Of a stretch of 64,000 nucleotides of DNA, positions 11,966-29,267 are shown piece after piece. The notes under the pieces are model-generated. The model made no database searches. It saw nothing but the letters and a program-made list of their open reading frames with translations, and was not told the origin of the DNA. Made by a program: the position numbers and the translations under genes. Source of the stretch: an uncultured Roseivirga sp. (lineage in GTDB: Bacteria > Bacteroidota > Bacteroidia > Cytophagales > Cyclobacteriaceae); contig CANLOY010000001.1 in NCBI GenBank assembly GCA_947493005.1, positions 124,001-188,000 of the forward strand. The letters are read 5' to 3'. The number at the start of each line of letters is the position of its first letter. Position 1 is the first letter of the stretch.

Positions 11966-13411
11966 TTACCAGTCTATCTTGAAATACTCTTTTTCGCCAT
12001 CCGGGTATTTTCCCATCACATAAAAGTCTCTTTTTTTAGTATCCATTAGGCTCTGAAAATTCTTTAAGCTGGTAATATCCTGATCACCTACTTTGGTAAT
12101 CACAAAACCTTCTTTGATACCAGCCTCTTTCCAGGCACCCTCTCCTATTTCAACTACCTGGACACCACCATCAATTCTCAGGCGATTCTCAATGTTTTCT
12201 GTGATATCGGCAAAAATTGCTCCTTCAATTTTATAAGTAAACCTTATCTCTTCAGGGCTTCTCGCTACAAATGTTTCTTTTTCCCTCAAAATCAACGAAG
12301 CCTCTTTTATATCTCCATCTCTTTTGAACTTCACCAGCACTTTATCCCCGGGCCTTTTTCTAGCTACAAATTCCTGTAGTTCACTTGTCGTTCTAACAAG
12401 TCTTTCATCAATACCAACGATTACATCATCTCCTCTCATCCCTGCCTCCTCAGCCGCTCCGCCAGCAGTCACTTCTCGAACCAACACGCCAGATAATTCA
12501 TCCGTAAATCTTCCATCGGCATCCACAATTTGCACTCCTAAAAGCCCTCTTCGTACTTCACCAAATTCTAAAAGGTCGTCCATCACTTTCTTTACCAGAA
12601 CCGATGGCACTGCAAAAGAGTAACCATTAAATGTTCCTGTATTAGTGGCAATAGCTGTATTGATACCAATCAGATTCCCGTCAAGGTTTACAAGTGCACC
12701 TCCGCTGTTACCTCTGTTCACAACAGCATCTGTCTGAATAAAAGACTCAATGCCATACTGATTCCGGACACCGCTGATTAAATTAATATTTCTAGCCTTC
12801 GCACTAACAATACCCGCTGTCACCGTATTGTTCAAATCGAACGGATTACCAACAGCCAAAACCCACTCGCCAATCTCCACCTGATCAGAATCTCCAAATT
12901 CAACAAAATCCAGAGCCCTGGCCTTTACCTTAATAAGTGCCAGGTCAGTATCAGGATCTACTCCTATCAATTCAGCAGGCAACCTTCTATTATCATCGAG
13001 CCTAACTTCTAACTCATCAGCATCTTCAACCACATGATAATTGGTAGCTATATAGCCATCATTAGAAATAATAACACCAGAGCCTGTAGACTGCCTCACT
13101 CGACTTCTTCGCCCTAGTAATCTAGACCATGCTCCCGATCTACCCGAAGGTGAGTTTGTATTGGTTATATGCACAACAGCCGGTACTGCTGCCCTTGATG
13201 CTTTTATAAAATTAATTCCTTCAGGAACAATGTACTTTCTGGGGCTCTCATCAATTTCATTGAGCGATGTGGTCAATGTTGTACTCTGTCCAAAAACATC
13301 AGATGAATCATCATTGTTTCTCTCCAGAAAACTCACCCCAACCAGAACAATCAGACCTCCTAATAGAGAGGAAGCCAACAACCCGAGAAAAAACTGTCTT
13401 TTTGTAATCAT
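11966..13411 (-). CDS. htrA: Do/HtrA family periplasmic serine protease
   Basis: 481 residues with an N-terminal membrane anchor or signal (about 8-28). A trypsin-like domain has the complete triad His126 (ATNYHVV), Asp156 (DPDTDLALIKV) and Ser236 (NRGNSGGAL). A PDZ domain follows (about 285-380: GLLGVQIVDADG, GGAAEEAGMRGDDVIVGIDERLV), and a shorter C-terminal PDZ-like segment with GFVITKVGDQDI. DegP-type proteases degrade or hold misfolded envelope proteins. It lies head-to-tail with the Hsp20 gene, both on the minus strand but with separate terminators, which suggests stress-related neighbours rather than one operon. Confidence 0.93.
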   Translation of the reverse strand: MITKRQFFLGLLASSLLGGLIVLVGVSFLERNNDDSSDVFGQSTTLTTSLNEIDESPRKYIVPEGINFIKASRAAVPAVVHITNTNSPSGRSGAWSRLLGRRSRVRQSTGSGVIISNDGYIATNYHVVEDADELEVRLDDNRRLPAELIGVDPDTDLALIKVKARALDFVEFGDSDQVEIGEWVLAVGNPFDLNNTVTAGIVSAKARNINLISGVRNQYGIESFIQTDAVVNRGNSGGALVNLDGNLIGINTAIATNTGTFNGYSFAVPSVLVKKVMDDLLEFGEVRRGLLGVQIVDADGRFTDELSGVLVREVTAGGAAEEAGMRGDDVIVGIDERLVRTTSELQEFVARKRPGDKVLVKFKRDGDIKEASLILREKETFVARSPEEIRFTYKIEGAIFADITENIENRLRIDGGVQVVEIGEGAWKEAGIKEGFVITKVGDQDITSLKNFQSLMDTKKRDFYVMGKYPDGEKEYFKIDW

Positions 13412-14188: not shown

Positions 14189-15454
14189 ATGTCTTCTAAA
14201 AGAAAACATTTACTAAAAGCTCTCGGACCAGGGATTTTGTTTGCCAGCACATGTATTGGCGTTTCCCATCTTGTTCAATCTACCAGAGCCGGAGCCGATT
14301 ATGGTTTTAGCCTGGTAATTTTCATTGCCCTGGCGCTGCTATTCAAATATCCGTTTTTCGAATTCGGATCCAGATATGCCGCTGCAACTCGTACAAGCTT
14401 ATTACAAGGCTATTTAAAAGAAGGCAAATGGGTATTATGGGTTTACTTCCTGCTAAGCCTGGCTTCTATGTTTACAGTAACCGCTGCAGTTACGTTTGTG
14501 ACCGCAGGAATGCTGAACAACCTCATGGGTTGGAACATTGACCCGGTGTACCTATCTGGTGGAATACTGATTGTTTGCACTTTGATTCTTGCACTGGGCA
14601 AATACAGCATCCTGGATAGTCTACTCAAAGTGATTGGAGCTGTACTGCTTGTCTCAACACTAACTGCCTTTTTTGGAGTGTTATTCAAAGGAAGGATAGC
14701 ACCCGTTGAAAATTTCATTCCGAAGGAATTAATGGAGCGGAATGGAATTATCTTTTTAATTGCACTAATGGGCTGGATGCCAACAGCTGTAGATCTTTCC
14801 ACATGGAATAGTCTTTGGGCTATTGAGCGAATGAATCAGACAGGGTATCGGGCAAAACTCAAGGAAATACTGTTTGATTTCAACTTTGGCTATATAGTTA
14901 CTGCCGTGTTAGCCATTTGCTTTCTTACACTAGGTGCCTATGTTATGTATGGGTCAGGTACTGAGCTCTCGAACAACAGCACAGTATTTTCTGACCAAGT
15001 TGTACAACTATACACCAATGCATTGGGTCAATGGGCATACCCTATAATTGCCATAGCCGCTTTTTCAACCATGTTCAGTACCACAATTACTGTGGTTGAC
15101 GGCTTTGGAAGAGCGATGGGAGAAACTGTTCGATTGCTATTCTTCAAGAATGCTGGAATCAAAACACTATACACAGCAATGATGGTAATTGTTGCAGTTG
15201 TTTCATTCTTCTTTATAGTACTACTCTCTTCCAACCTGAAAGATTTGGTTGACCTGGCTACAACGCTCTCATTTGTAATTGCTCCAGTGATTGCCTTTAT
15301 CAATTATAAGGTGATTATGTCTGACCAAATTGAAGCGGCATATAAACCAAAACCATGGCTCAAAAATCTATCGATTCTAGGCTTGATATTCCTCACCGTA
15401 TTTGCCCTAATCTATATCGGTGTGTACTTCAATTTGCTTGATTTAAATTTTTAA
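14189..15454 (+). CDS. Nramp-like transporter lacking canonical metal motifs
   Basis: 421 residues with about 11 membrane segments, beginning LLKALGPGILFASTCIGVSHLVQSTRAGADYGFSL. The position and the GPG and RAGADYG flanks match the first membrane helix of Nramp/MntH proteins, but the metal-binding DPGN is replaced by GVSH. The sixth-helix MPH motif is also absent (ALMGWMPTAVDLSTW). Canonical Nramps co-transport manganese or iron with protons using those residues, so this protein may carry a different ion or solute. It stands alone after a 200-bp gap. The fold assignment is firm; the substrate is not. Confidence 0.78.
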   Translation: MSSKRKHLLKALGPGILFASTCIGVSHLVQSTRAGADYGFSLVIFIALALLFKYPFFEFGSRYAAATRTSLLQGYLKEGKWVLWVYFLLSLASMFTVTAAVTFVTAGMLNNLMGWNIDPVYLSGGILIVCTLILALGKYSILDSLLKVIGAVLLVSTLTAFFGVLFKGRIAPVENFIPKELMERNGIIFLIALMGWMPTAVDLSTWNSLWAIERMNQTGYRAKLKEILFDFNFGYIVTAVLAICFLTLGAYVMYGSGTELSNNSTVFSDQVVQLYTNALGQWAYPIIAIAAFSTMFSTTITVVDGFGRAMGETVRLLFFKNAGIKTLYTAMMVIVAVVSFFFIVLLSSNLKDLVDLATTLSFVIAPVIAFINYKVIMSDQIEAAYKPKPWLKNLSILGLIFLTVFALIYIGVYFNLLDLNF

Positions 15455-15543
15455 AATAAATGTAAAAAAGGGTTTGGTTTATTTTCAACCAAGCACTAAT
15501 ATTGCACTCCCATTCGCTGATCGAGTGAATGAAATGGAAAATT

Positions 15544-15616
15544 CCTCCTTAGCTCAGTTGGTTAGAGCATCTGACTGTTAATCAGAGGGTCCTTGGTTCG
15601 AGCCCAAGAGGAGGAG
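15544..15616 (+). tRNA. tRNA-Asn (anticodon GTT)
   Basis: A 73-nt cloverleaf. A 7-bp acceptor stem pairs 15544-15550 with 15609-15615. The anticodon stem pairs 15570-15574 with 15582-15586 around CTGTTAA, with anticodon GTT at 15577-15579. The T arm pairs 15592-15596 with 15604-15608 around TTCGAGC. The discriminator base is G and the CCA end is not encoded. Confidence 0.97.
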
Positions 15617-15626
15617 CTTAAAAATC

Positions 15627-15724: not shown

Positions 15725-15783
15725 TAAAAAAAGAGTAGGAATTACAAGAATGAACAAACAATTACTCGTTCTTGTAATTCCTA
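15725..15783 (-). terminator. Long intrinsic terminator of the sigma/anti-sigma operon
   Basis: An 18-bp stem with a single G-T wobble pairs 15736-15753 with 15766-15783 around a 12-nt loop. On the minus strand it is followed by CTC and seven T (complement of 15726-15732). It lies 16 bp after the stop of the 15800 gene. The stem is unusually long for a simple terminator. Confidence 0.85.
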
Positions 15784-15799
15784 CACTAAGAGAGTTATT

Positions 15800-17317
15800 C
15801 TAAAATTTGAATTGTGCTCCAATTTGAAAAGAAGCCCTAGGCCAGAAGCTGTAGGTAGTATAAGGATCATTAACGTTAAGCATGAAATGCATCCTCACAT
15901 TACCAGTAGCTTTGAATAGGGTGCCCAAACCCAAATTGGTTGCAAAAGTACCTTTACCATATTTTTGAGCGGTAAAATTAGAATACCCGGTTCTGAGGTT
16001 AAGACCAGCCTGCATCAACCCATACCAACGGTACTTTCCAAACAACAAATTGTAGTTCAATTGAATCCCAGAATTATCTAGATACATTGGATCTTTCTTT
16101 TGCGAATACCCTCTCACGGGTAACCTAAACCCTAGTTGAACAAATGATTTTGATGTTAGATATTTACCCGCTCCAAACCCCACATTTCCAGCATGTCCAA
16201 AAAATTGATCTAACCCTGCATAAGTATAAGCATACCAATTCCATTCCTCTTTATTTCTAGAGCTTAAGCCCCTTCTCAAATCATTTGCTCCCCTCTGGGA
16301 AAACCCCCTTCTCTGCCATTTTTCAAAGTTCCCTAAAGAAACCTGAGCACCTAAAGAGATTTTCGAAACGGTGGATTGACCTTCTCCAAAAAAACGAAAA
16401 TTAGTGTGTGAGAATCTCGTGAAAAATCTGAATTTTTCAGAAGTATGATAATATGCACCTACCCCAAAAGAAGGGCCCAATACGTCCTTGACAACTAGCA
16501 GCCCCAATTCAGGCCCAAACTTTAACCTGCCATCACCAAAAAGGTAACTAAAACTTGAGTAAAAATAATTTCCTCCAAAGTCTGCCTGAAAGACTATTTT
16601 TCTAGACAGGTTAAAGCCAAACCCTGCATAGAAAGTGTTTCTTAACACTCCTCTACTATTTTCTGGGGTGTTTTTAGCGGAGGTTACACCCGCAGTAACG
16701 AAAAACTTCCATGGGTCAATCAAAGTTCGCTTACGCTGGTTGATAGTGTCAGCTTTAAACACCTCCGGGAATTTGACTCCTATTGGATCTATTTTAAGAC
16801 TCTTCAAATATTCGTGCCTATTCTGATGATACATTGGCATACCTAACCTAGATATGTAACTCTGTTGGAAATCCGCATTGATTGGCTCAATACATTCGTT
16901 TAACAACGGCTCTTTTTCACCATTAAAAGGCTTAACCAACTCTTTTACAGACTGATCGGTCTTGCTAAATGAAGTAGTTAACTTTCGGCTCAAATCATGT
17001 CTGTTTTCTTCTGCTAAAACAACATTAGTGGAATCGGTTTTTACCCCCACATTCTCCGGGCCCTTCTTCAAGGATGAAGTTATCTCTTTATCAGAAGGGT
17101 CATAAGTTCTAAAATGGAAACTGTCTGAGATACCGACATACACAGCTAGCAAAACAAACACTGCTGCAGTGGCAAGCCTAAATAAAAAGTATTTTTTCCT
17201 TTTTCTATTCGCTCCAGATTGAGCCTCAAGAGCCTGTTGCATTTTAGCCCAAGCCTTAGGATCGTAGGTGGATTTATGCCCTTTGACTCTTTCTATATAG
17301 TTATCTTGACTACTCAT
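15800..17317 (-). CDS. Predicted dual-membrane-spanning anti-sigma factor with C-terminal beta-barrel
   Basis: 505 residues. Residues 1-42 are cytoplasmic and basic with a DPKAWAKMQQAL helix, a motif seen in many Bacteroidota anti-sigma factors. One membrane helix spans about 44-63. A polar, low-complexity periplasmic linker runs to about 205. The rest is a series of amphipathic aromatic strands (FYAGFGFNLSRKIVFQADFGGNYF, GPSFGVGAYYHTSEKFRFFTRFSHTNF) ending in a terminal Phe (QIGAQFKF), the outer-membrane beta-signal. The start overlaps the ECF sigma gene by 8 bp. This layout matches the dual membrane-spanning anti-sigma (Dma) type described in Bacteroides, which should connect outer membrane state directly to the sigma factor. 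The role here is inferred from architecture. Confidence 0.75.
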   Translation of the reverse strand: MSSQDNYIERVKGHKSTYDPKAWAKMQQALEAQSGANRKRKKYFLFRLATAAVFVLLAVYVGISDSFHFRTYDPSDKEITSSLKKGPENVGVKTDSTNVVLAEENRHDLSRKLTTSFSKTDQSVKELVKPFNGEKEPLLNECIEPINADFQQSYISRLGMPMYHQNRHEYLKSLKIDPIGVKFPEVFKADTINQRKRTLIDPWKFFVTAGVTSAKNTPENSRGVLRNTFYAGFGFNLSRKIVFQADFGGNYFYSSFSYLFGDGRLKFGPELGLLVVKDVLGPSFGVGAYYHTSEKFRFFTRFSHTNFRFFGEGQSTVSKISLGAQVSLGNFEKWQRRGFSQRGANDLRRGLSSRNKEEWNWYAYTYAGLDQFFGHAGNVGFGAGKYLTSKSFVQLGFRLPVRGYSQKKDPMYLDNSGIQLNYNLLFGKYRWYGLMQAGLNLRTGYSNFTAQKYGKGTFATNLGLGTLFKATGNVRMHFMLNVNDPYTTYSFWPRASFQIGAQFKF

Positions 17318-17879
17318 AAACTTCAGAATTAATATTAGACTCTGTGATTACTTTAAACTGTAATTTCTTTCTTGCCGAAGACAATAACCACCTCGAAGTA
17401 CCTGCATTAATACCTGTCTCTTTTTCAATCTCTGGATGGCTATAACCGTCAATCTCATGCATGGAAAAAACAAGTCTTTCTTGTTCTGGTAAACCGTGTA
17501 TCAGTTCAAAAATTCGCTCTACCTCCAAGCGGTCGAAAACCATATTTAAACTTACTTTCACATCGTTCATTTCCTCAACTCGCAGAAATGTCGATGAAGG
17601 ACGCTGGTTAACGCTCTTTTTTAAATAATTGATTGAGGTTCTAATAAGTATTGTGGCTGCCCAGGCATTATAGTTTGTCCCAACAGAAAAATCCGGGAGG
17701 CTATTATAAACCTTGAGCATTCCAAAATTAAAAACCCATTGAGCCTCTTCAACATCCTTGCAATACCTTCTTGCACAATTGAACAGTTCTCTGTATGTAT
17801 ATTCATACAGCTTCTCCTGAGCCTTACAATCCTCCTTTAAACAGTCTTCTAATATTTGATTTAGCTCGTGTACTTCCAA
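17310..17879 (-). CDS. ECF-type RNA polymerase sigma factor
   Basis: 189 residues with the two ECF domains. Sigma-2 spans about 10-85 (EKLYEYTYRELFNCARRYCKDVEEAQWVFNFGMLKVYNSL, and GTNYNAWAATILIRTSINYLKK). Sigma-4 spans about 120-178 (VFDRLEVERIFELIHGLPEQERLVFSMHEIDGYSHPEIEKETGINAGTSRWLLSSARKKL). There is no anti-sigma-like C-terminal extension. Its stop codon overlaps the start of the downstream beta-barrel anti-sigma gene, so the pair is co-translated, which is the usual arrangement for an ECF sigma and its inhibitor. Confidence 0.92.
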   Translation of the reverse strand: MEVHELNQILEDCLKEDCKAQEKLYEYTYRELFNCARRYCKDVEEAQWVFNFGMLKVYNSLPDFSVGTNYNAWAATILIRTSINYLKKSVNQRPSSTFLRVEEMNDVKVSLNMVFDRLEVERIFELIHGLPEQERLVFSMHEIDGYSHPEIEKETGINAGTSRWLLSSARKKLQFKVITESNINSEVYE

Positions 17880-17927: not shown

Positions 17928-18359
17928 TTACTTCTTAACTAGCTTCATTGTACACTTCTGAACAGGATCTTCAATGTCAACAATATTTTCCATTTCTATA
18001 TTTAGATTAAGCTCACTTTCAGATACCACTTCCATAGTACCAACATACTTATACTGATTCTCGAGTACTTGTTCTTTTATGATCAACTCATTTTCAACAA
18101 TACTCACAACCCAACCATTTTCCTCACTTGGATAGTCCGGATACTTGAATACCATTGTATTAGGTTCATGGCCCAGTGCCAATTCAATGTTTTGCGTCCC
18201 TATATAAACACCTGTTTCATCATAACCTGGCCTACATTCAAAGGTTCCTTCATACAAGCCTAGGTAATCATTTATATCAAATGGTCGGGTTTCATCTTCA
18301 TTGCAGCTCACTATCAGAATGCTACATGCCAATAGTAATGTTATAATGTTAGTTCTCAT
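17928..18359 (-). CDS. Hypothetical lipoprotein
   Basis: From ATG at 18359 (the frame opens at 18383) the product is 143 residues with a lipoprotein signal peptide whose lipobox is IVSC, followed by NEDET. The mature part is acidic, about 120 residues and rich in beta-strand (DYLGLYEGTFECRPGYDE, NTMVFKYPDY, KYVGTMEVVSESELNLNIEM), with two further cysteines. The pattern resembles small lipocalin-like or DUF-type lipoproteins of this phylum, but I do not recognise a named family. It lies 48 bp upstream of the sigma factor gene on the same strand, so it could be transcribed with the sigma/anti-sigma pair. Confidence 0.65.
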   Translation of the reverse strand: MRTNIITLLLACSILIVSCNEDETRPFDINDYLGLYEGTFECRPGYDETGVYIGTQNIELALGHEPNTMVFKYPDYPSEENGWVVSIVENELIIKEQVLENQYKYVGTMEVVSESELNLNIEMENIVDIEDPVQKCTMKLVKK

Positions 18360-18527
18360 TTTAGATATGATTTTATATACCATATCAACCGAACTACATT
18401 AAACGTTGGCTCGAGGGTTGATTTTTTTTCAAAAGTTTAAAAATCAAAAGGAATACGGAACGAAAAGCTATAGAAAAGCCTAGCTTCGACTTCCTATTAA
18501 AAAGTCTCCTATACTAGGTTAAGGATT

Positions 18528-23427: not shown

Positions 23428-25005
23428 CTAATTGTATCCTGGGTTCTGGGATAAGTTTCCGTTCTTATCTCTTTCTCCCTGTGGAATAGGGAACAAATAG
23501 TTGGCATTGTCCCAGCTTCTGGTTTCCCAAACAGCTCTTCCTGGGCCAACCAAGGCTCCACTATTATCCATGTTTACCCTGTAAATGGTGAGCACTTCCG
23601 GATCACCAGCAATACCCCATCTTCTTATATCCCAAAAACGATGTTCTTCAAAGGCTAACTCAATTCTTCGTTCTCTTCTGACACGTGTTCTCAAAGTTGC
23701 CTGATCACCTACAGGGATTGCCGGCATCTGAGATCTTGACCGAACGGTATTGATAGCACTCGTTGCACCAGCAAGATTTGTGTTCGATTCAATAAGTGCT
23801 TCGGCATAGTTTAAATAAACTTCTCCCAGCCTCATATAAATCCAATGCTGAGTTGACTGCTCATTATGGTTACGATCTTCCTGAATCATTTTTTTCATAG
23901 AATATCCTGTCCTTGTAAAGTCACCACCTCTGTTATATCCAGCATTTCCATTAGGTCTGTGCTCAACTGTTATTCCTTTCCACTGTGAACCATCGTGAAT
24001 AATTGATGCTTCAAACCTTGGGTCTCTCCCATCATAAGGATTGTTAGGGTCATAACCAGAACCAGCCTCTAAAGGCAACAAACCTGTAGCTTGCATTTCG
24101 TACTGATCTACAAGGTTCTGCGTTGGGCCTGTACCACCCCAACCACTTACGGCTGTATTGGTCTTTGGCGTATTGAAAAGGTTACCCCAATGCCCTCTGT
24201 CAGGGTCGCTGAACTGTTTGTCAAAAATCACTTCAGAAGCACCATTATTAACAAATACACTTGCATAATTACCATCAAGAGATCTTGAAGTATTGTCAAG
24301 TACAGCCTTAGAAGCTACTGCCGACTCCGCAAACTTACCTTCGTATAGTAGTACTCTTCCTTTCAAAGCCATTGCAGCATCCCAGCTACCTCTTGTGCTA
24401 CTAGCGCTTTCAGCGTTTTCAAAAAACACTGCAGCCTGATCAAGATTGGTAACAATGAAATTCAAAGTTTCCTCGTTCGTATTTCGCGATACCAAAAGAT
24501 CGTCATCCAGTTCTTGTGGCTTGTCAATAACTGGTACACCTCCAAAGGTTCTTAGCAACAGCGTATAGTAAAACCCTCTAAGAAAGTGGGCTTCTCCTTT
24601 TAACCTGTTGTTTACCATGTCAGTGCCCTCCAGCTTCTCATAGTTCTCAATAAAAATATTGAGCTTTCTGATTTGAGTATATGCATTCCCCCAAAGCCCA
24701 TTGAATGGCGAGTTTTGCGGAGTAATGTTAGCCGTATTAAACCTGGTATTAGATGCTGGCCAAGGGTATGAATTTTCAGCGTCATCAGATGCAGCATCCA
24801 ACATATACCAGCCTCTCTCAAAACCATTAGGTATACCCGCGTAAACCGAGTTTAGATATACCTGCGCAAAAGCAGGGTCTTTAAATGCCACCTCCGAAGA
24901 AATAGCTCCCTGCGGATCAAGGTCTATGGCGTCTTCACCGCACGAAAAAGTAAGTGCCAGTACAGCAACCAAAGACAGTATTAGTTTTATTCTTTTCATA
25001 GTCAT
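23428..25005 (-). CDS. SusD/RagB family glycan-binding lipoprotein
   Basis: 525 residues with a lipoprotein signal peptide (lipobox TFSC). The SusD fold shows as the N-terminal EDAIDLDPQGAISSEVAFKDP segment, TPR-like helices around GEAHFLRGFYYTLLLRTFGGVPVI, and the C-terminal RRWG, NYLFPIPQGERDKNGNLSQNPGY end typical of the family. SusD proteins form the outer-surface lid that binds oligosaccharides and passes them to SusC. The start lies 6 bp after the SusC stop; a second ATG two codons in is possible. Sugar specificity cannot be read from sequence, but the galactosidase operon opposite suggests a galactoside. Confidence 0.96.
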   Translation of the reverse strand: MTMKRIKLILSLVAVLALTFSCGEDAIDLDPQGAISSEVAFKDPAFAQVYLNSVYAGIPNGFERGWYMLDAASDDAENSYPWPASNTRFNTANITPQNSPFNGLWGNAYTQIRKLNIFIENYEKLEGTDMVNNRLKGEAHFLRGFYYTLLLRTFGGVPVIDKPQELDDDLLVSRNTNEETLNFIVTNLDQAAVFFENAESASSTRGSWDAAMALKGRVLLYEGKFAESAVASKAVLDNTSRSLDGNYASVFVNNGASEVIFDKQFSDPDRGHWGNLFNTPKTNTAVSGWGGTGPTQNLVDQYEMQATGLLPLEAGSGYDPNNPYDGRDPRFEASIIHDGSQWKGITVEHRPNGNAGYNRGGDFTRTGYSMKKMIQEDRNHNEQSTQHWIYMRLGEVYLNYAEALIESNTNLAGATSAINTVRSRSQMPAIPVGDQATLRTRVRRERRIELAFEEHRFWDIRRWGIAGDPEVLTIYRVNMDNSGALVGPGRAVWETRSWDNANYLFPIPQGERDKNGNLSQNPGYN

Positions 25006-25011
25006 AAATCC

Positions 25012-28000
25012 TTAGAATTGAGCATTTAAACCGATTACAAAAACTCTCTGCTGTGGATAGAACCATCCTCTTTGCTGAGGATTTTCAGGATCCAGATGTT
25101 TGATCTTAGACCATGTCATCAGGTTTCTACCGTTTAGGTAAACCCTTAGTTTATCAAGCCCAAGTTTGGCAGTCACATTCTCTTTAAAGGTGTAACCTAC
25201 CTCAACATTCTTAAATCTTAGATAATCACCAGGTACTAGCCAGTATGAAGAGAATCGCTCATTTACCGCATTGCCTGTCAAAGTCAATCTTGGGTAAGTA
25301 GCACCTGGATTAGTTACATTACCATCGGCACCAATCTGTGCTCGGTCCAAGTGCTTGTCAAATACTTTACCTCCGTTGAAAAAGGCCCATGATGCTTCGT
25401 TAGAAAGGTACATATCGAAATTAGCAGCTCCCTGGAATAGGGCTGAGAAATCGAAACCTTCATATTGAAAACCGAAGTTCAAACCGAAAGTAAGTTCAGG
25501 CACATTACCTCTTCCTATTACAGTTCTGTCATCACCATCTACCTTACCATCACCATTCAAATCCCTGTACTTGATGTCACCGGGTTGTGGGTTCTGAGTT
25601 TGATAAACGCCACCTGCCGCAGCATTCAAATCATCAATTTCCTGTTGGGTAAGGAAAATACCATCAGCGATATATCCGATTCTGGTACCCGCCTGAATAG
25701 GTCTCCCTGTTCTTCTCCTTAAAGGGTCTACATCTTCTGGTTCAGCAATATCAATTACTTCATTTTTGGCATAGCCCATATTGAAGTTGGCGTAGTACTC
25801 TATGCCTTTGATATTGTTGTTATGGTTGATGCTAATGTCAATACCTCTGTTATCAACTACACCAATGTTTTCTGCTGGCAAAGTTGCCCCAAAAGTAGAA
25901 GGCACTTGCAATGATCTTGTTGTCAGAATGTCTTCAGTTCGCTTGTAGAAAAGGTCTGCTTCGATTCTGAGTATATCATCCCAAAGCCCTACCTCTGCTG
26001 CTATGTTGAATGTTTTTGCTTTTTCCCAAGTAGTAGATGGGTCAGCCAAACCGGTAGTACTAATAGTTTGGGCAACAGTACCGTTGTCAATAAATGCTCC
26101 ACCAAACGTGAAGAATTCCAGGTATCTGAATGCTCCTATTGCATCGCTACCTAATACCCCGTAAGACAATCTAAGCTTTGCGTTGCTAACCAGGCTCGAA
26201 CTTGAAAGGAAATCTTCTTCAGAAAGTCTCCATGCTACAGAAACAGAAGGGAAGAAATCGAATCTAGCCCCCTTGCTAAACCTATAAGATCCATCGTATC
26301 TACCGTTTACTTCAAAAAGGTATTTCTGATCGTAAGCATAAGTGAATCTACCAGCATAGCCTAAAATAGCTGATTCACCTCTGCCGTTTGAAAGAGACCT
26401 GGTTTCTGCATCACCGGCTATAAAGAAAGGCACTGTGGTTCCCAGCATATTGCTAATTCCTCCATTCAATGACTGTGATTCTGTAGTAGTACGTGAATAA
26501 ACCAATGTACCACCGAAGTCATGCTTGTCTACAGTCTTATTATACCTTAGAATACCTTCGGTAACCACTCTTAATCCCTGACTAAACCCATCAGAAAGAG
26601 ATGCTGTTTCCCCTCTGCCACTTGGCGTACTCAAAGAAAACTCTCCCGTATTCTCATCAAACAAAGTATAAGTTCTTGGTACGTTGAAACCCTTTCCTCT
26701 GGTAGATGTTCTATCATAAGCCACCTGAGCGGTAAAGCTTAAGCCTTTCAAAAATGGAAAATCAACATTAAGGGCTACTTTAGAATAGAAACGGAAAGTT
26801 TCGTTTTCGTTAAAACCGCCACTCTGAATTCTCGGCTCTACTGCAAAAACTGAATAGCCGCCATTGGTATACTGATTCACCTCTGTTGGCCTTGTTCTAT
26901 ACAGATTAGAGATTAATGTGCTTGAACTGATGTCAGGCCTGTTGGTTTTCTGAAGACTACCACTGAAATCTGTTGCCAGACTGATATTGTTTGTGATCTT
27001 AATATCAAGGTTAGTCCTGAAGTTAGTTCTGTTAAAATCATTGTTGTCATAAAGAGCATCCTGATACAAATACCCTAATGAACTGAAGTAACTGATGTTT
27101 CCATTTTCGCTGGTTCCTCTCATTGAAAGGTCAGCAGACTGCATGAAAGAACTACCCTTCAAGGTCTCGCCTACCCAATCTGTGTTTGGATGTGTATTAG
27201 GGTTTGAACCATCTCTGAACTTTTGTAAGTCATTTTCAGTAAATGAAGCAGGTGCACCATCATTAGTATTGGCCTCGTTTAGCAGAACTGCCATATTGTA
27301 AGAGTCCAAGAAGTCTGGCACTCTGGTAGCACTTTGTAGTCCGGAGTAAATATTCACGTTGAATTTAGGCTCTCCAGCGCTACCTCTTTTTGTTGTTACC
27401 AAAACCACTCCATTTGCAGCCCGCATACCATAAATAGCTGCTGCTGCGGCATCCTTAAGTACACTTATACTTGCAATGTCATTAGGATTAAGGTCATTAA
27501 TTGATCTTGGCACTCCATCAATCAAGATCAGCGGTGAGTTGTTATTTAAAGAGCTAAGCCCTCTTATTCTCAGTGCTGCTGCATCAGCACCCGGCTCACC
27601 TGAGCTCTGTATAGTAGTAAGTCCAGCAAGTCGTCCTGAAAGCGCACTACTAATATTAGCCGTACTGTTTTTTACAATGTCATCGGAATTGACAGTGGCA
27701 ACCGCCCCAGTCACATTCACCTTTTTCTGAGTACCGTAGCCAACTACTACTACCTCTCCAAGGTTTTTAACATCTTCTTCCAGCATTACTGTGAGTTGCG
27801 TTTCAGCACCAATTGTCACCTCCTTAGGTATATAACCAACAAAGCTGAAAACCAGAATATCTCCTTGGTTTACGCTAAGTCGAAAATTACCATCCGAGTC
27901 CGTAATCTGTCCTTGTGTAGTTCCCTTAATGGAAACTGAAACACCAGGGATTGTCTGGTTGGTTTTAGAATCAAGCACCCTACCACTTATGGATCTTTGC

Positions 28001-28071
28001 TGAGCCTGGAGTGCATTGACAGCAAAAACCATAAGCAACAGAATTGCTTTTACAAGTAGGTTTCTTTTCAT
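25012..28071 (-). CDS. SusC/RagA family TonB-linked outer membrane transporter
   Basis: 1019 residues. A signal peptide (about 1-23, NALQAQ) is followed by a carboxypeptidase-D-regulatory-like domain (about 25-100: ISGRVLDSKTNQTIPGVSVSIKGTTQGQITDSDGNF), a TonB-interacting stretch (GEVVVVGYGTQKK), a plug (LRIRGLSSLNNNSPLILIDGVP), and a long C-terminal barrel ending in VFVIGLNAQF. There is no FecR-interacting extension, so regulation is not by a SusC-linked anti-sigma. It forms the outer-membrane pore for glycans captured by SusD. It is divergent from the GntR regulator gene, with about 200 bp between the starts. Confidence 0.97.
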   Translation of the reverse strand: MKRNLLVKAILLLMVFAVNALQAQQRSISGRVLDSKTNQTIPGVSVSIKGTTQGQITDSDGNFRLSVNQGDILVFSFVGYIPKEVTIGAETQLTVMLEEDVKNLGEVVVVGYGTQKKVNVTGAVATVNSDDIVKNSTANISSALSGRLAGLTTIQSSGEPGADAAALRIRGLSSLNNNSPLILIDGVPRSINDLNPNDIASISVLKDAAAAAIYGMRAANGVVLVTTKRGSAGEPKFNVNIYSGLQSATRVPDFLDSYNMAVLLNEANTNDGAPASFTENDLQKFRDGSNPNTHPNTDWVGETLKGSSFMQSADLSMRGTSENGNISYFSSLGYLYQDALYDNNDFNRTNFRTNLDIKITNNISLATDFSGSLQKTNRPDISSSTLISNLYRTRPTEVNQYTNGGYSVFAVEPRIQSGGFNENETFRFYSKVALNVDFPFLKGLSFTAQVAYDRTSTRGKGFNVPRTYTLFDENTGEFSLSTPSGRGETASLSDGFSQGLRVVTEGILRYNKTVDKHDFGGTLVYSRTTTESQSLNGGISNMLGTTVPFFIAGDAETRSLSNGRGESAILGYAGRFTYAYDQKYLFEVNGRYDGSYRFSKGARFDFFPSVSVAWRLSEEDFLSSSSLVSNAKLRLSYGVLGSDAIGAFRYLEFFTFGGAFIDNGTVAQTISTTGLADPSTTWEKAKTFNIAAEVGLWDDILRIEADLFYKRTEDILTTRSLQVPSTFGATLPAENIGVVDNRGIDISINHNNNIKGIEYYANFNMGYAKNEVIDIAEPEDVDPLRRRTGRPIQAGTRIGYIADGIFLTQQEIDDLNAAAGGVYQTQNPQPGDIKYRDLNGDGKVDGDDRTVIGRGNVPELTFGLNFGFQYEGFDFSALFQGAANFDMYLSNEASWAFFNGGKVFDKHLDRAQIGADGNVTNPGATYPRLTLTGNAVNERFSSYWLVPGDYLRFKNVEVGYTFKENVTAKLGLDKLRVYLNGRNLMTWSKIKHLDPENPQQRGWFYPQQRVFVIGLNAQF

Positions 28072-28254: not shown

Positions 28255-28262
28255 TACATTTG
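28255..28262 (+). promoter_or_regulatory. Candidate -7 box for the GntR-led operon
   Basis: TACATTTG is an exact TANNTTTG match. Transcription would begin about 6-8 nt downstream, which falls on the ATG at 28269, so the mRNA would be nearly or wholly leaderless. A long A/T stretch takes the -33 position. Confidence 0.38.
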
Positions 28263-28268
28263 TTTCAT

Positions 28269-29267
28269 ATGGGGTTAATAAATATTGAGCAAGACCTTGC
28301 TGAACCTAAGTACAAACAGATTGTGTCTTCCATCGAAAAAGGAGTGTTAGACCGGGTTTTGAAAAAGGGAGATCGCCTGCCTTCCATCAACAGTATCCGT
28401 AAAAAATTCTCTGTATCAAGAGACACTGTTCTGTTGGCTTATAGCGAGCTAAAAGCACGGGGCATTGTACAGTCAATTTCAGGCAAAGGCTATTATGTCA
28501 AAAGTGAGAATATCGACACTGTTCAAAAGGTTTTTCTTTTATTTGATGAATTGAATGTTTTCAAAGAAGACCTCTACAGCTCTTTTCTAGAAAATATTGA
28601 AGACAATATTCAGGTAGATATTTTCTTTCATCATTTTAATCATGACGTATTCAGTAAACTGATTTACGATAATATTGGCAGTTATTCCAGCTACATCATT
28701 ATGCCGGCCAACCTGAAAAACACCAGAGATGTAATTGAAAAGCTTCCTAATGATAAAGTCTATATTTTAGATCAAACCAATGAAGACCTTCTGGAATACA
28801 AAGCTATATATCAGAATTTTGAGAAGGACATTTTCAATAGCCTGAATAAAGGATTTAATCTTATCAAAAAATATCAGTCTTTGGTTTTTCTCTTTCAGGA
28901 AGAAAAACAACCACAAGGTATGCTCAGAGGGTTCAACAAATTCTGTAAGGAGAGCAATTTCCCTGGTGAAGTAACAATAACATTTGACGACAGGGTGCCA
29001 AAACGAGGAGAGGTTTATCTTATCCCTGACAACAGGAACCTCATTCTGATTATTAAAAAAATCAGGGAAGAAGGACTTACCATTGGCAAGGATATCGGTA
29101 TTATCGCCTACAACGATTCGCTGATCAAAGAAGTAGTTGAAGGAGGGATTACTACCATCAGTACGGATTTCAAAGAAATGGGAGAAAAGCTGGCTGAAAT
29201 GCTCAAAAGCAGTGAGCACCTAATGATAGAAAACAGAAATGAATTGATCATTAGAAATTCTCTTTAG
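28269..29267 (+). CDS. GntR family regulator with LacI-like sensor domain
   Basis: From ATG at 28269 (a TTG opens the frame at 28260) the protein is 332 residues. An N-terminal winged helix (about 8-75: PKYKQIVSSIEKGVLDRVLKKGDRLPSINSIRKKFSVSRDTVLLAYSELKARGIV) is followed by a C-terminal periplasmic-binding-protein-like domain of the LacI/XylR kind (about 85-330), ending in an EMGEKLAEML helix. Such regulators sense a sugar or sugar phosphate and act on adjacent transport and glycosidase genes. It heads the epimerase, symporter and beta-galactosidase run and faces susC. Confidence 0.9.
   Translation: MGLINIEQDLAEPKYKQIVSSIEKGVLDRVLKKGDRLPSINSIRKKFSVSRDTVLLAYSELKARGIVQSISGKGYYVKSENIDTVQKVFLLFDELNVFKEDLYSSFLENIEDNIQVDIFFHHFNHDVFSKLIYDNIGSYSSYIIMPANLKNTRDVIEKLPNDKVYILDQTNEDLLEYKAIYQNFEKDIFNSLNKGFNLIKKYQSLVFLFQEEKQPQGMLRGFNKFCKESNFPGEVTITFDDRVPKRGEVYLIPDNRNLILIIKKIREEGLTIGKDIGIIAYNDSLIKEVVEGGITTISTDFKEMGEKLAEMLKSSEHLMIENRNELIIRNSL

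What the first reader, a model, noticed from the sequence alone, without database searches (positions are those of the whole stretch)
15800..17879. Sigma factor paired with a predicted anti-sigma protein that spans both membranes
The 17310 gene is a clear ECF sigma factor. Its overlapping partner has a cytoplasmic anti-sigma-like N-terminus (DPKAWAKMQQAL), one inner-membrane helix at residues 44-63, a polar linker of about 140 residues, and a barrel-like C-terminus ending in Phe. This matches the dual membrane-spanning anti-sigma (Dma) architecture reported in Bacteroides, where outer membrane state is read without a separate sensor. It may be a distant version outside the gut Bacteroides, with an uncharacterised stimulus.
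Basis: partly seen in the sequence, partly recalled or inferred. Interest (0 to 1): 0.7.

Follow-up and report, generated by a model that had tools for sequence, protein, structure and literature searches.

The report
Two-membrane anti-sigma factor and sigma pair
A Bacteroidota bacterium carries a gene switch (sigma factor) next to a guard protein whose sequence looks built to run from the cytoplasm to the outer membrane; this is a further member of the recently described Dma type, which turns out to be common outside Bacteroides too.

Summary
A 189-aa ECF sigma factor (17310-17879, -) overlaps by 8 nt a 505-aa partner (15800-17317, -) with a 44-residue cytoplasmic start, one membrane helix (45-63), a polar tether (64-202) and a Gly/aromatic-rich C-terminus ending QIGAQFKF, a beta-signal-like end. 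The nearest same-genus relative keeps both ends (46% and 44% identity) better than the tether (28%). By profile comparison the N-terminal domain is homologous to partners from NigD-bearing, probably Bacteroidales, genomes, among them an operon with the published Dma2 neighbour (DUF4943). In an ECF tree the sigma falls in a supported group holding all 51 rows labelled Dma-like, sigma-fused Dma3-like forms included. The barrel rests on sequence: Pfam barrel models match relatives, not the window protein itself. AlphaFold2 without an alignment gave no usable model (pLDDT 34.8 and 31.7), so a closed barrel is neither shown nor refuted. The plan is ordinary: 24 of 30 related loci have a long partner, and three more lie in this genome. 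Verdict: new member of a known kind (Dma/ECF21-type), in a divergent lineage with a longer C-terminal domain, accessory beside a tRNA-Asn. Stimulus and regulon unknown.

The parts
17310..17879 (-). ECF sigma factor, 189 aa, TTG start
   Evidence: Pfam r4_2 7.5e-12 and r2 6.1e-8; tree places it in the Dma-associated ECF group
15800..17317 (-). Dma-type anti-sigma factor, 505 aa, overlaps the sigma gene by 8 nt
17186..17317 (-). residues 1-44: cytoplasmic anti-sigma domain with the conserved W23
   Evidence: hhalign of the cytoplasmic part alone: 93.8% to family partners (A3), 91.4% to Dma-type set (A4), reversed controls 0.2-0.4%, 12 other anti-sigma groups 0.1-3.8%; helical, residues 1-40 at pLDDT 62-77, in the single-sequence model
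17129..17185 (-). residues 45-63: inner-membrane helix
   Evidence: single hydropathy peak over threshold, 2.23
16712..17128 (-). residues 64-202: polar periplasmic tether, 139 aa
   Evidence: poorly conserved (28% and 12% identity to L062 and L063), polar composition
15803..16711 (-). residues 203-505: predicted outer-membrane beta-barrel domain
   Evidence: 44% identity to nearest homologue; homologue L064 matches PF13505 at 2.8e-6, 28.1 bits, just under the 28.7 cut-off; hhalign of the last 52 columns against family partners 96.8%; aromatics 19%
15803..15826 (-). C-terminal beta-signal-like end QIGAQFKF
   Evidence: pattern present near the C-terminus in 23 of 30 proteins, shuffles mean 3.1, max 9
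15732..15787 (-). inverted repeat (22-nt arms) followed by T-run, likely terminator of the pair
   Evidence: sequence; not among the three terminator-like sites of the consensus scan, which counts shorter stems
17928..18383 (-). small predicted lipoprotein 48 bp upstream of the sigma gene, perhaps same transcript
   Evidence: signal plus Cys by reading; no Pfam family; no homologue at E<=0.001 in the 18 other genus genomes; role in the system is a guess
15543..15617 (+). tRNA-Asn at the conserved edge beside which the pair sits

Best explanation
A Dma-type envelope stress switch. The partner's residues 1-44 bind and silence the ECF sigma factor at the inner membrane; the chain crosses the inner membrane once, runs through the periplasm as a 139-residue disordered tether and is anchored in the outer membrane by a C-terminal beta-barrel. 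Damage to, or a ligand at, the outer membrane (or failure to assemble the barrel) would free the sigma factor, most likely by proteolysis of the tether and then of the membrane helix, and the sigma factor would transcribe its own operon and envelope genes. Shown here: gene order and overlap, the segment plan, conservation at both ends with a drifting tether, homology of the N-terminal domain to Dma-type proteins, sigma family placement. Inferred: closed barrel and outer membrane location, sigma binding, proteolytic release, stimulus and regulon.
For: Overlapping pair kept in same-genus genome G207. Cytoplasmic N-terminal profile 93.8% and 91.4% to the two comparison sets, against at most 0.4% reversed and at most 3.8% for 12 other anti-sigma groups. 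Sigma in a 98-supported group of 65 rows holding all 51 Dma-like rows, and in a 28-row, 97-supported set of Dma-like rows only. Comparison proteins identified by the published Dma2 neighbour DUF4943 (3.7e-47, 1.2e-48), as described in PMC13088901, and by NigD. Barrel: PF13505 in homologue L064, which the window protein itself finds at 5.9e-5 over 234-504; last 52 columns 96.8% to family partners, 2 of 10 scanned of which match PF13568 over cut-off; beta-signal-like end.
Against: No usable structure: pLDDT 34.8 and 31.7. The window protein itself matches no barrel family. C-terminal domain alone: 62.7% to family partners and only 15.1% to the Dma-type set, reversed controls 1.4% and 5.1%. Strand alternation is weak: 12 against 8.65 +/- 2.03 in shuffles for the window, and 9-13 against 7.5-9.7 in its four homologues. 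With the membrane helix included, two other anti-sigma groups (FecR-type L092/L075 and TonB-tailed L078) reach 69.6% and 79.3%, so only the cytoplasmic part discriminates. The C-terminal domain is longer (274-307 aa) than in the comparison sets (172-213 and 157-242 aa). The same N-terminal domain also occurs in short anti-sigma proteins without a fused C-terminal domain.
Confidence: 0.82

Rival explanations
1. An ordinary inner-membrane anti-sigma factor: the C-terminal 300 residues are a soluble, beta-rich periplasmic sensor domain and never reach the outer membrane.
For: No barrel model; no barrel family hit for the protein itself; weak strand alternation; domain longer than in comparison sets; by reading, a basic stretch at about residues 331-358.
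Against: PF13505 in homologue L064; 96.8% profile match of the C-terminal end to family partners, several with barrel matches; beta-signal-like C-terminus, also in the four homologues; 19% aromatic, 13% Gly.
Confidence: 0.12
2. The pair is a local regulator of the neighbouring polysaccharide-utilisation island (SusD at 23428-25005, TonB-dependent receptor at 25012-28071, sulfatases and fucosidase further on), sensing a glycan at the outer membrane rather than damage.
For: Position between the tRNA-Asn and the SusD/SusC-type genes; PMC13088901 reports that loss of Dma2 changes PUL expression (abstract and passages read).
Against: The island has its own GntR-family regulator at 28260-29267 (PF00392 2e-13); the G207 pair lies among other genes; no expression data.
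Confidence: 0.1
3. The sigma/anti-sigma pair is not a functional unit: the partner controls nothing or another sigma factor.
For: The genome has 43 matches to an ECF model at E<=1e-6, so cross-talk is possible.
Against: 8-nt overlap kept with both proteins in G207; co-occurrence of this sigma group with this partner type across the tree.
Confidence: 0.04

Closest known systems
[quoted passage not shown]
   Same: Segment plan as described in PMC13088901 (anti-sigma N-terminus, one helix, long disordered tether, C-terminal barrel), adjacent ECF sigma of the same tree group as operon-matched Dma2-type loci, homologous N-terminal domain.
   Different: C-terminal domain only weakly similar (15.1%) and longer; not next to NigD or DUF4943; stimulus and regulon unknown.
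EcfO-Reo and the M0N98_03761-03760 pair of Phocaeicola vulgatus
   Same: Sigma followed by a large anti-sigma predicted to span the periplasm with an outer membrane barrel (PMC9308784, passages read).
   Different: NigD genes are in the regulon there (PMC13114119, passages read); no NigD match in this genome.
Dma3-type fusions (sigma and anti-sigma in one chain)
   Same: Same tree group; L128 has sigma domains plus PF13568 in 547 aa.
   Different: Two genes in the window.
Short anti-sigma with separate downstream secreted genes (split form, e.g. L069, L066)
   Same: N-terminal domain 97.1% by profile with helix, 78.9% without; same sigma group.
   Different: No fused C-terminal domain; proteins with signal-like starts follow as separate genes.

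Membership tests
[quoted passage not shown]
   Cytoplasmic part alone 91.4% to the Dma-type set, reversed control 0.4%, 12 other anti-sigma groups at most 3.8%. Binding itself not testable.
Dma family (as defined in PMC13088901) | single transmembrane helix after the N-terminal domain | tested here: met
   residues 45-63
Dma family (as defined in PMC13088901) | long disordered tether | tested here: met
   139 aa, polar, poorly conserved; disorder inferred from composition and divergence, not measured
Dma family (as defined in PMC13088901) | C-terminal outer-membrane beta-barrel | tested here: inconclusive
   Sequence evidence for; AlphaFold2 unusable; 15.1% to the Dma-type C-termini
Dma family (as defined in PMC13088901) | adjacent cognate ECF21 sigma factor | tested here: inconclusive
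   Adjacent, and in one 98-supported group with the sigma factors of operon-matched Dma2-type and Dma3-type loci; no ECF21 model was available to assign the number itself
Dma family (as defined in PMC13088901) | found in Bacteroidota | tested here: met
Other phyla were not searched.
Dma family (as defined in PMC13088901) | loss derepresses the cognate sigma and raises vesiculation | not testable with these tools
   needs a mutant
NigD-linked EcfO-Reo type | NigD lipoprotein beside the pair or in the genome | tested here: not met
   0 PF12667 matches at E<=1e-5 in G000

The most novel reading that the evidence does not exclude
Bacteroidota use one anti-sigma module (W-motif domain plus helix) in exchangeable builds: fused to a tether and outer membrane barrel (Dma), fused to the sigma factor as well (Dma3), or split from separate outer membrane proteins. 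The window's lineage would be a distinct Dma class with an enlarged, about 300-residue C-terminal domain that senses something other than the known vesiculation and toxin stresses.
Probability: 0.25. Interest if true: 0.5.

Novelty: new member of a known kind. Interest (0 to 1): 0.33.

Why it matters
If right, direct outer-membrane-to-cytoplasm signalling through one polypeptide is a general Bacteroidota strategy, present several times in a single genome, and not a peculiarity of gut commensals. That gives many natural variants with different barrels and tethers on which to test how such a protein senses the outer membrane.

Tried and rejected
Structure prediction of the whole partner and of residues 196-505, both without alignment: pLDDT 34.8 and 31.7; not taken to fold search because a low-confidence model gives meaningless matches. 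The one admitted relative (L002) was not used, being too distant to align with confidence.

Tether as a ruler of fixed length: rejected. Lengths are narrow in two sets (139-159, n=5; 114-141, n=15) but 150-238 in the third (n=25), all 45 spanning 114-238.

Homologues in named genome contigs: none for the partner, one for the sigma (Flavobacterium restrictum). In viral contigs: none; the second viral scan could not be run because the alignment had no conserved stretch. Solved structures: none at E<=1. Single-sequence search in 196 family genomes: only itself at E<=0.001. The profile search of 390 order genomes (41 with a match) listed, apart from the window itself, only matches within the first 218 profile positions.

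Upstream lipoprotein as a NigD equivalent: no Pfam hit (BSAP-5i at 0.05 is not significant) and no homologue at E<=0.001 in 18 other genus genomes. Left open.

T9SS-tailed anti-sigma-like protein (L081) as a recurring type: of 24 listed matches outside this genome in a search of 148 family genomes, 23 cover only the tail region from residue 287 on and one covers 151-390, so it stays a single case.

Literature: searches. The founding Dma paper (PNAS 2024) and the EcfO paper (J Bacteriol 2013) are not held and are known only from reference lists and other papers' accounts; I therefore do not claim that Dma proteins outside Bacteroides are absent from print.

Full report
WHAT IS THERE. On the minus strand, a 189-aa sigma gene (17310-17879) overlaps by 8 nt a 505-aa gene (15800-17317). 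The sigma matches sigma-70 regions 2 and 4 over Pfam's cut-offs. The partner has no Pfam hit at E<=1; its two weak NCBIfam hits (0.034 and 0.16) are far below cut-off. Its plan is: residues 1-44 cytoplasmic with W23; helix 45-63; polar stretch 64-202; residues 203-505 rich in aromatics and Gly, ending QIGAQFKF. A 22-nt-arm inverted repeat followed by T residues lies directly after the stop, then a tRNA-Asn on the other strand.

CLOSE RELATIVES. In 196 family genomes the partner finds only itself at E<=0.001. In 19 genomes of the genus it finds, besides itself, three proteins in G207 and one in G206 at E<=0.001. All four lie directly after a sigma gene; in the nearest (L062) the overlap is also 8 nt, the sigma is 51% and the partner 40% identical. 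Identity to L062 is 46.5% over residues 1-44, 27.8% over the tether and 44.2% over 203-505; to L063 28.6%, 12.2% and 31.5%. Both ends are held and the middle drifts, as expected of a tether between two working domains.

WIDER RELATIVES. The sigma has matches at 1e-10 in 196 of 196 family genomes; at this level they are ECF sigma factors in general. Of the 30 non-self related loci read (29 and L002), 24 have a downstream partner of 421-503 aa, 19 of them with a helix over my hydropathy threshold, and 6 have a short one of 226-271 aa followed by a separate gene. Of 10 long partners scanned, 7 match the outer membrane barrel family PF13568 at E<=0.1, 2 of them over the cut-off. In the window's own genome, 40 of 43 ECF-like matches were examined: besides the window, L073, L076 and L079 have such partners, with barrel-family matches at 1.3e-7 (over cut-off), 3.1e-5 and 0.0029 (both under it); L106 is unsure (no Pfam hit), and L069 and, doubtfully, L072 have short ones.

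LINK TO DMA. PMC13088901 (outline with abstract, passages, section 6 and part of the reference list read) defines the family: anti-sigma N-terminus, one helix, long disordered tether, C-terminal barrel, next to an ECF21 sigma, found only in Bacteroidota; Dma2 has a gene for a DUF4943 protein beside it, Dma3 carries its sigma domain in the same chain. No named Dma sequence was available. I therefore took 10 of the 12 NigD-bearing genomes among 395 of the class (probably Bacteroidales, an inference: of 14 named control genomes only Bacteroides ihuae rings) and searched them with the sigma profile. Of 30 loci fetched, 16 have a long partner and 2 are sigma-fused; 2 are unsure and 10 other. L124 and L126 are followed by DUF4943 at 3.7e-47 and 1.2e-48, matching the Dma2 operon; L128 holds sigma domains and a barrel match in 547 aa, matching Dma3. 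By my reading of the coordinates, 8 of 13 NigD matches in these 10 genomes lie within 1 kb of an ECF match. Profile comparison of residues 1-75 gives 97.3% to this set and 97.1% to the family partners, against 0.5% and 0.2% for reversed controls; the cytoplasmic part alone gives 91.4% and 93.8%, reversed 0.4% and 0.2%. Against 12 groups of other anti-sigma proteins the cytoplasmic part gives 0.1-3.8%; with the helix included most stay under 10%, but FecR-type L092/L075 and TonB-tailed L078 reach 69.6% and 79.3%. So the discriminating evidence is the cytoplasmic part.

SIGMA TREE. In a quick tree of 106 sigma sequences (SH-aLRT support only; several long end branches, all but one named pair not meeting, none of them in the Dma-associated part), one branch (98) holds 65 rows: all 51 rows labelled Dma-like, all 9 split-type, 3 unsure and 2 other; the remaining 41 rows are 39 other and 2 unsure. 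The window sigma lies in a 28-row set (97) of Dma-like rows only. Most comparison rows were found through similarity to this sigma, which favours such a result; the own-genome rows were not chosen that way: 7 of 40 fall inside (4 Dma-like, 2 split, 1 unsure) and 33 outside, none of these labelled Dma-like. Labels were set partly by hand; 6 of the 7 own-genome rows that I overruled to other were later found to be FecR-type or TonB-tailed.

THE BARREL. For: homologue L064 matches PF13505 at 2.8e-6, 28.1 bits against a cut-off of 28.7; the window protein finds that protein at 5.9e-5 over 234-504; full-length profile comparison with family partners gives 96.8% over the last 52 columns; the xxGxx(hydrophobic)x(hydrophobic) end, which I know as the beta-signal from memory, occurs near the C-terminus in 23 of 30 proteins against 3.1 on average and at most 9 in 1000 shuffles, with the caveat that the rows are related. 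Against: no usable model; three of the four homologues, like the window protein, match no barrel family; C-terminal domains compared alone give 62.7% to family partners (reversed 1.4%) but only 15.1% to the Dma-type set (reversed 5.1%); strand alternation is barely raised, 12 against 8.65 +/- 2.03. The domain is 274-307 aa in this lineage against 172-213 and 157-242 in the other sets. I rate a barrel likely, not shown.

CONTEXT. The Nramp-type transporter (PF01566) left of the tRNA-Asn is present in 19 of 19 genus genomes, and a tRNA-Asn follows it in 16 of 18 loci scanned, the window's included. Of 20 loci read, only the window's shows the anti-sigma gene within the 1.5 kb beyond it, and what follows differs among genomes, with a few neighbours shared, though some loci end early. 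The pair is thus probably an accessory unit at a variable edge beside a tRNA gene. The small lipoprotein gene 48 bp upstream has no homologue at E<=0.001 in the other 18 genus genomes.

MECHANISM. The best reading is a Dma-type switch: sigma held by residues 1-44 at the inner membrane, tether through the periplasm, barrel anchor in the outer membrane, release on outer membrane disturbance. PMC9308784 (passages read) reports for a pair of this kind in Phocaeicola vulgatus that interrupting the anti-sigma gene turns on its regulon and that exposure to the toxin BcpT raises the sigma gene 33-fold; PMC13088901 reports that the effect of losing Dma2 needs Das2. By analogy the release here is probably proteolytic, but no step after the gene anatomy is shown for this pair.

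NOVELTY. The architecture was in print by 2022 (PMC9308784) and named by 2024 (title of the PNAS paper, seen only in reference lists). This is a further member, in a divergent lineage. What is mildly new to me is how common long partners are in this family and the mix of fused and split builds; I do not claim that this is unpublished.

Noticed in passing
L081:2271-3446:- (own genome, outside the window): A 391-aa anti-sigma-like protein after an ECF sigma gene has a cytoplasmic start, one membrane helix and a C-terminal type IX secretion sorting domain (PF18962, 1.8e-9, over cut-off). Possibly another way for one chain to reach the outer membrane; a search of 148 family genomes found almost only the tail domain elsewhere.
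   Followed up: partly
L078:3805-5076:+ and L086:3762-4544:+ (own genome, outside the window): Proteins after ECF sigma genes with one membrane helix and a C-terminal TonB domain (PF03544, 2.1e-15 and 5.8e-12): anti-sigma-like starts joined to a TonB end, perhaps another envelope-spanning build.
   Followed up: no
L069:623-3953, L066:2523-5732, and L020, L021, L025, L028, L029, L032: Split form: sigma, short anti-sigma with a W-motif domain and helix, then separate genes, several with signal-like starts; these 8 sigma rows form one 100-supported group inside the Dma-associated group.
   Followed up: partly
window 17928-18383: Small predicted lipoprotein just upstream of the sigma gene, found in 1 of 19 genus genomes, this one. 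In the comparison genomes NigD or a DUF4840 protein (L120:821-1444) holds a similar place.
   Followed up: partly
window 14189-15617 and beyond: A transporter plus tRNA-Asn edge is kept in the genus, with mostly different genes after it: a variable site.
   Followed up: partly
window 20002-62512: A polysaccharide island: SusD, TonB-dependent receptor, GntR-family regulator, alpha-L-fucosidase and two sulfatases by Pfam; further sulfatase-like genes by reading only.
   Followed up: partly
L133:2022-2540:+ and L134:2027-2563:+: NigD-adjacent ECF genes with short anti-sigma proteins (172 and 178 aa) that lack the W motif, although their sigma factors group with the Dma-associated ones.
   Followed up: no
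window 11966-13411: HtrA/DegS-like protease (trypsin-like plus PDZ) next to an HSP20 gene, in a block kept in the genus; a possible general envelope protease, not specific to the pair.
   Followed up: no
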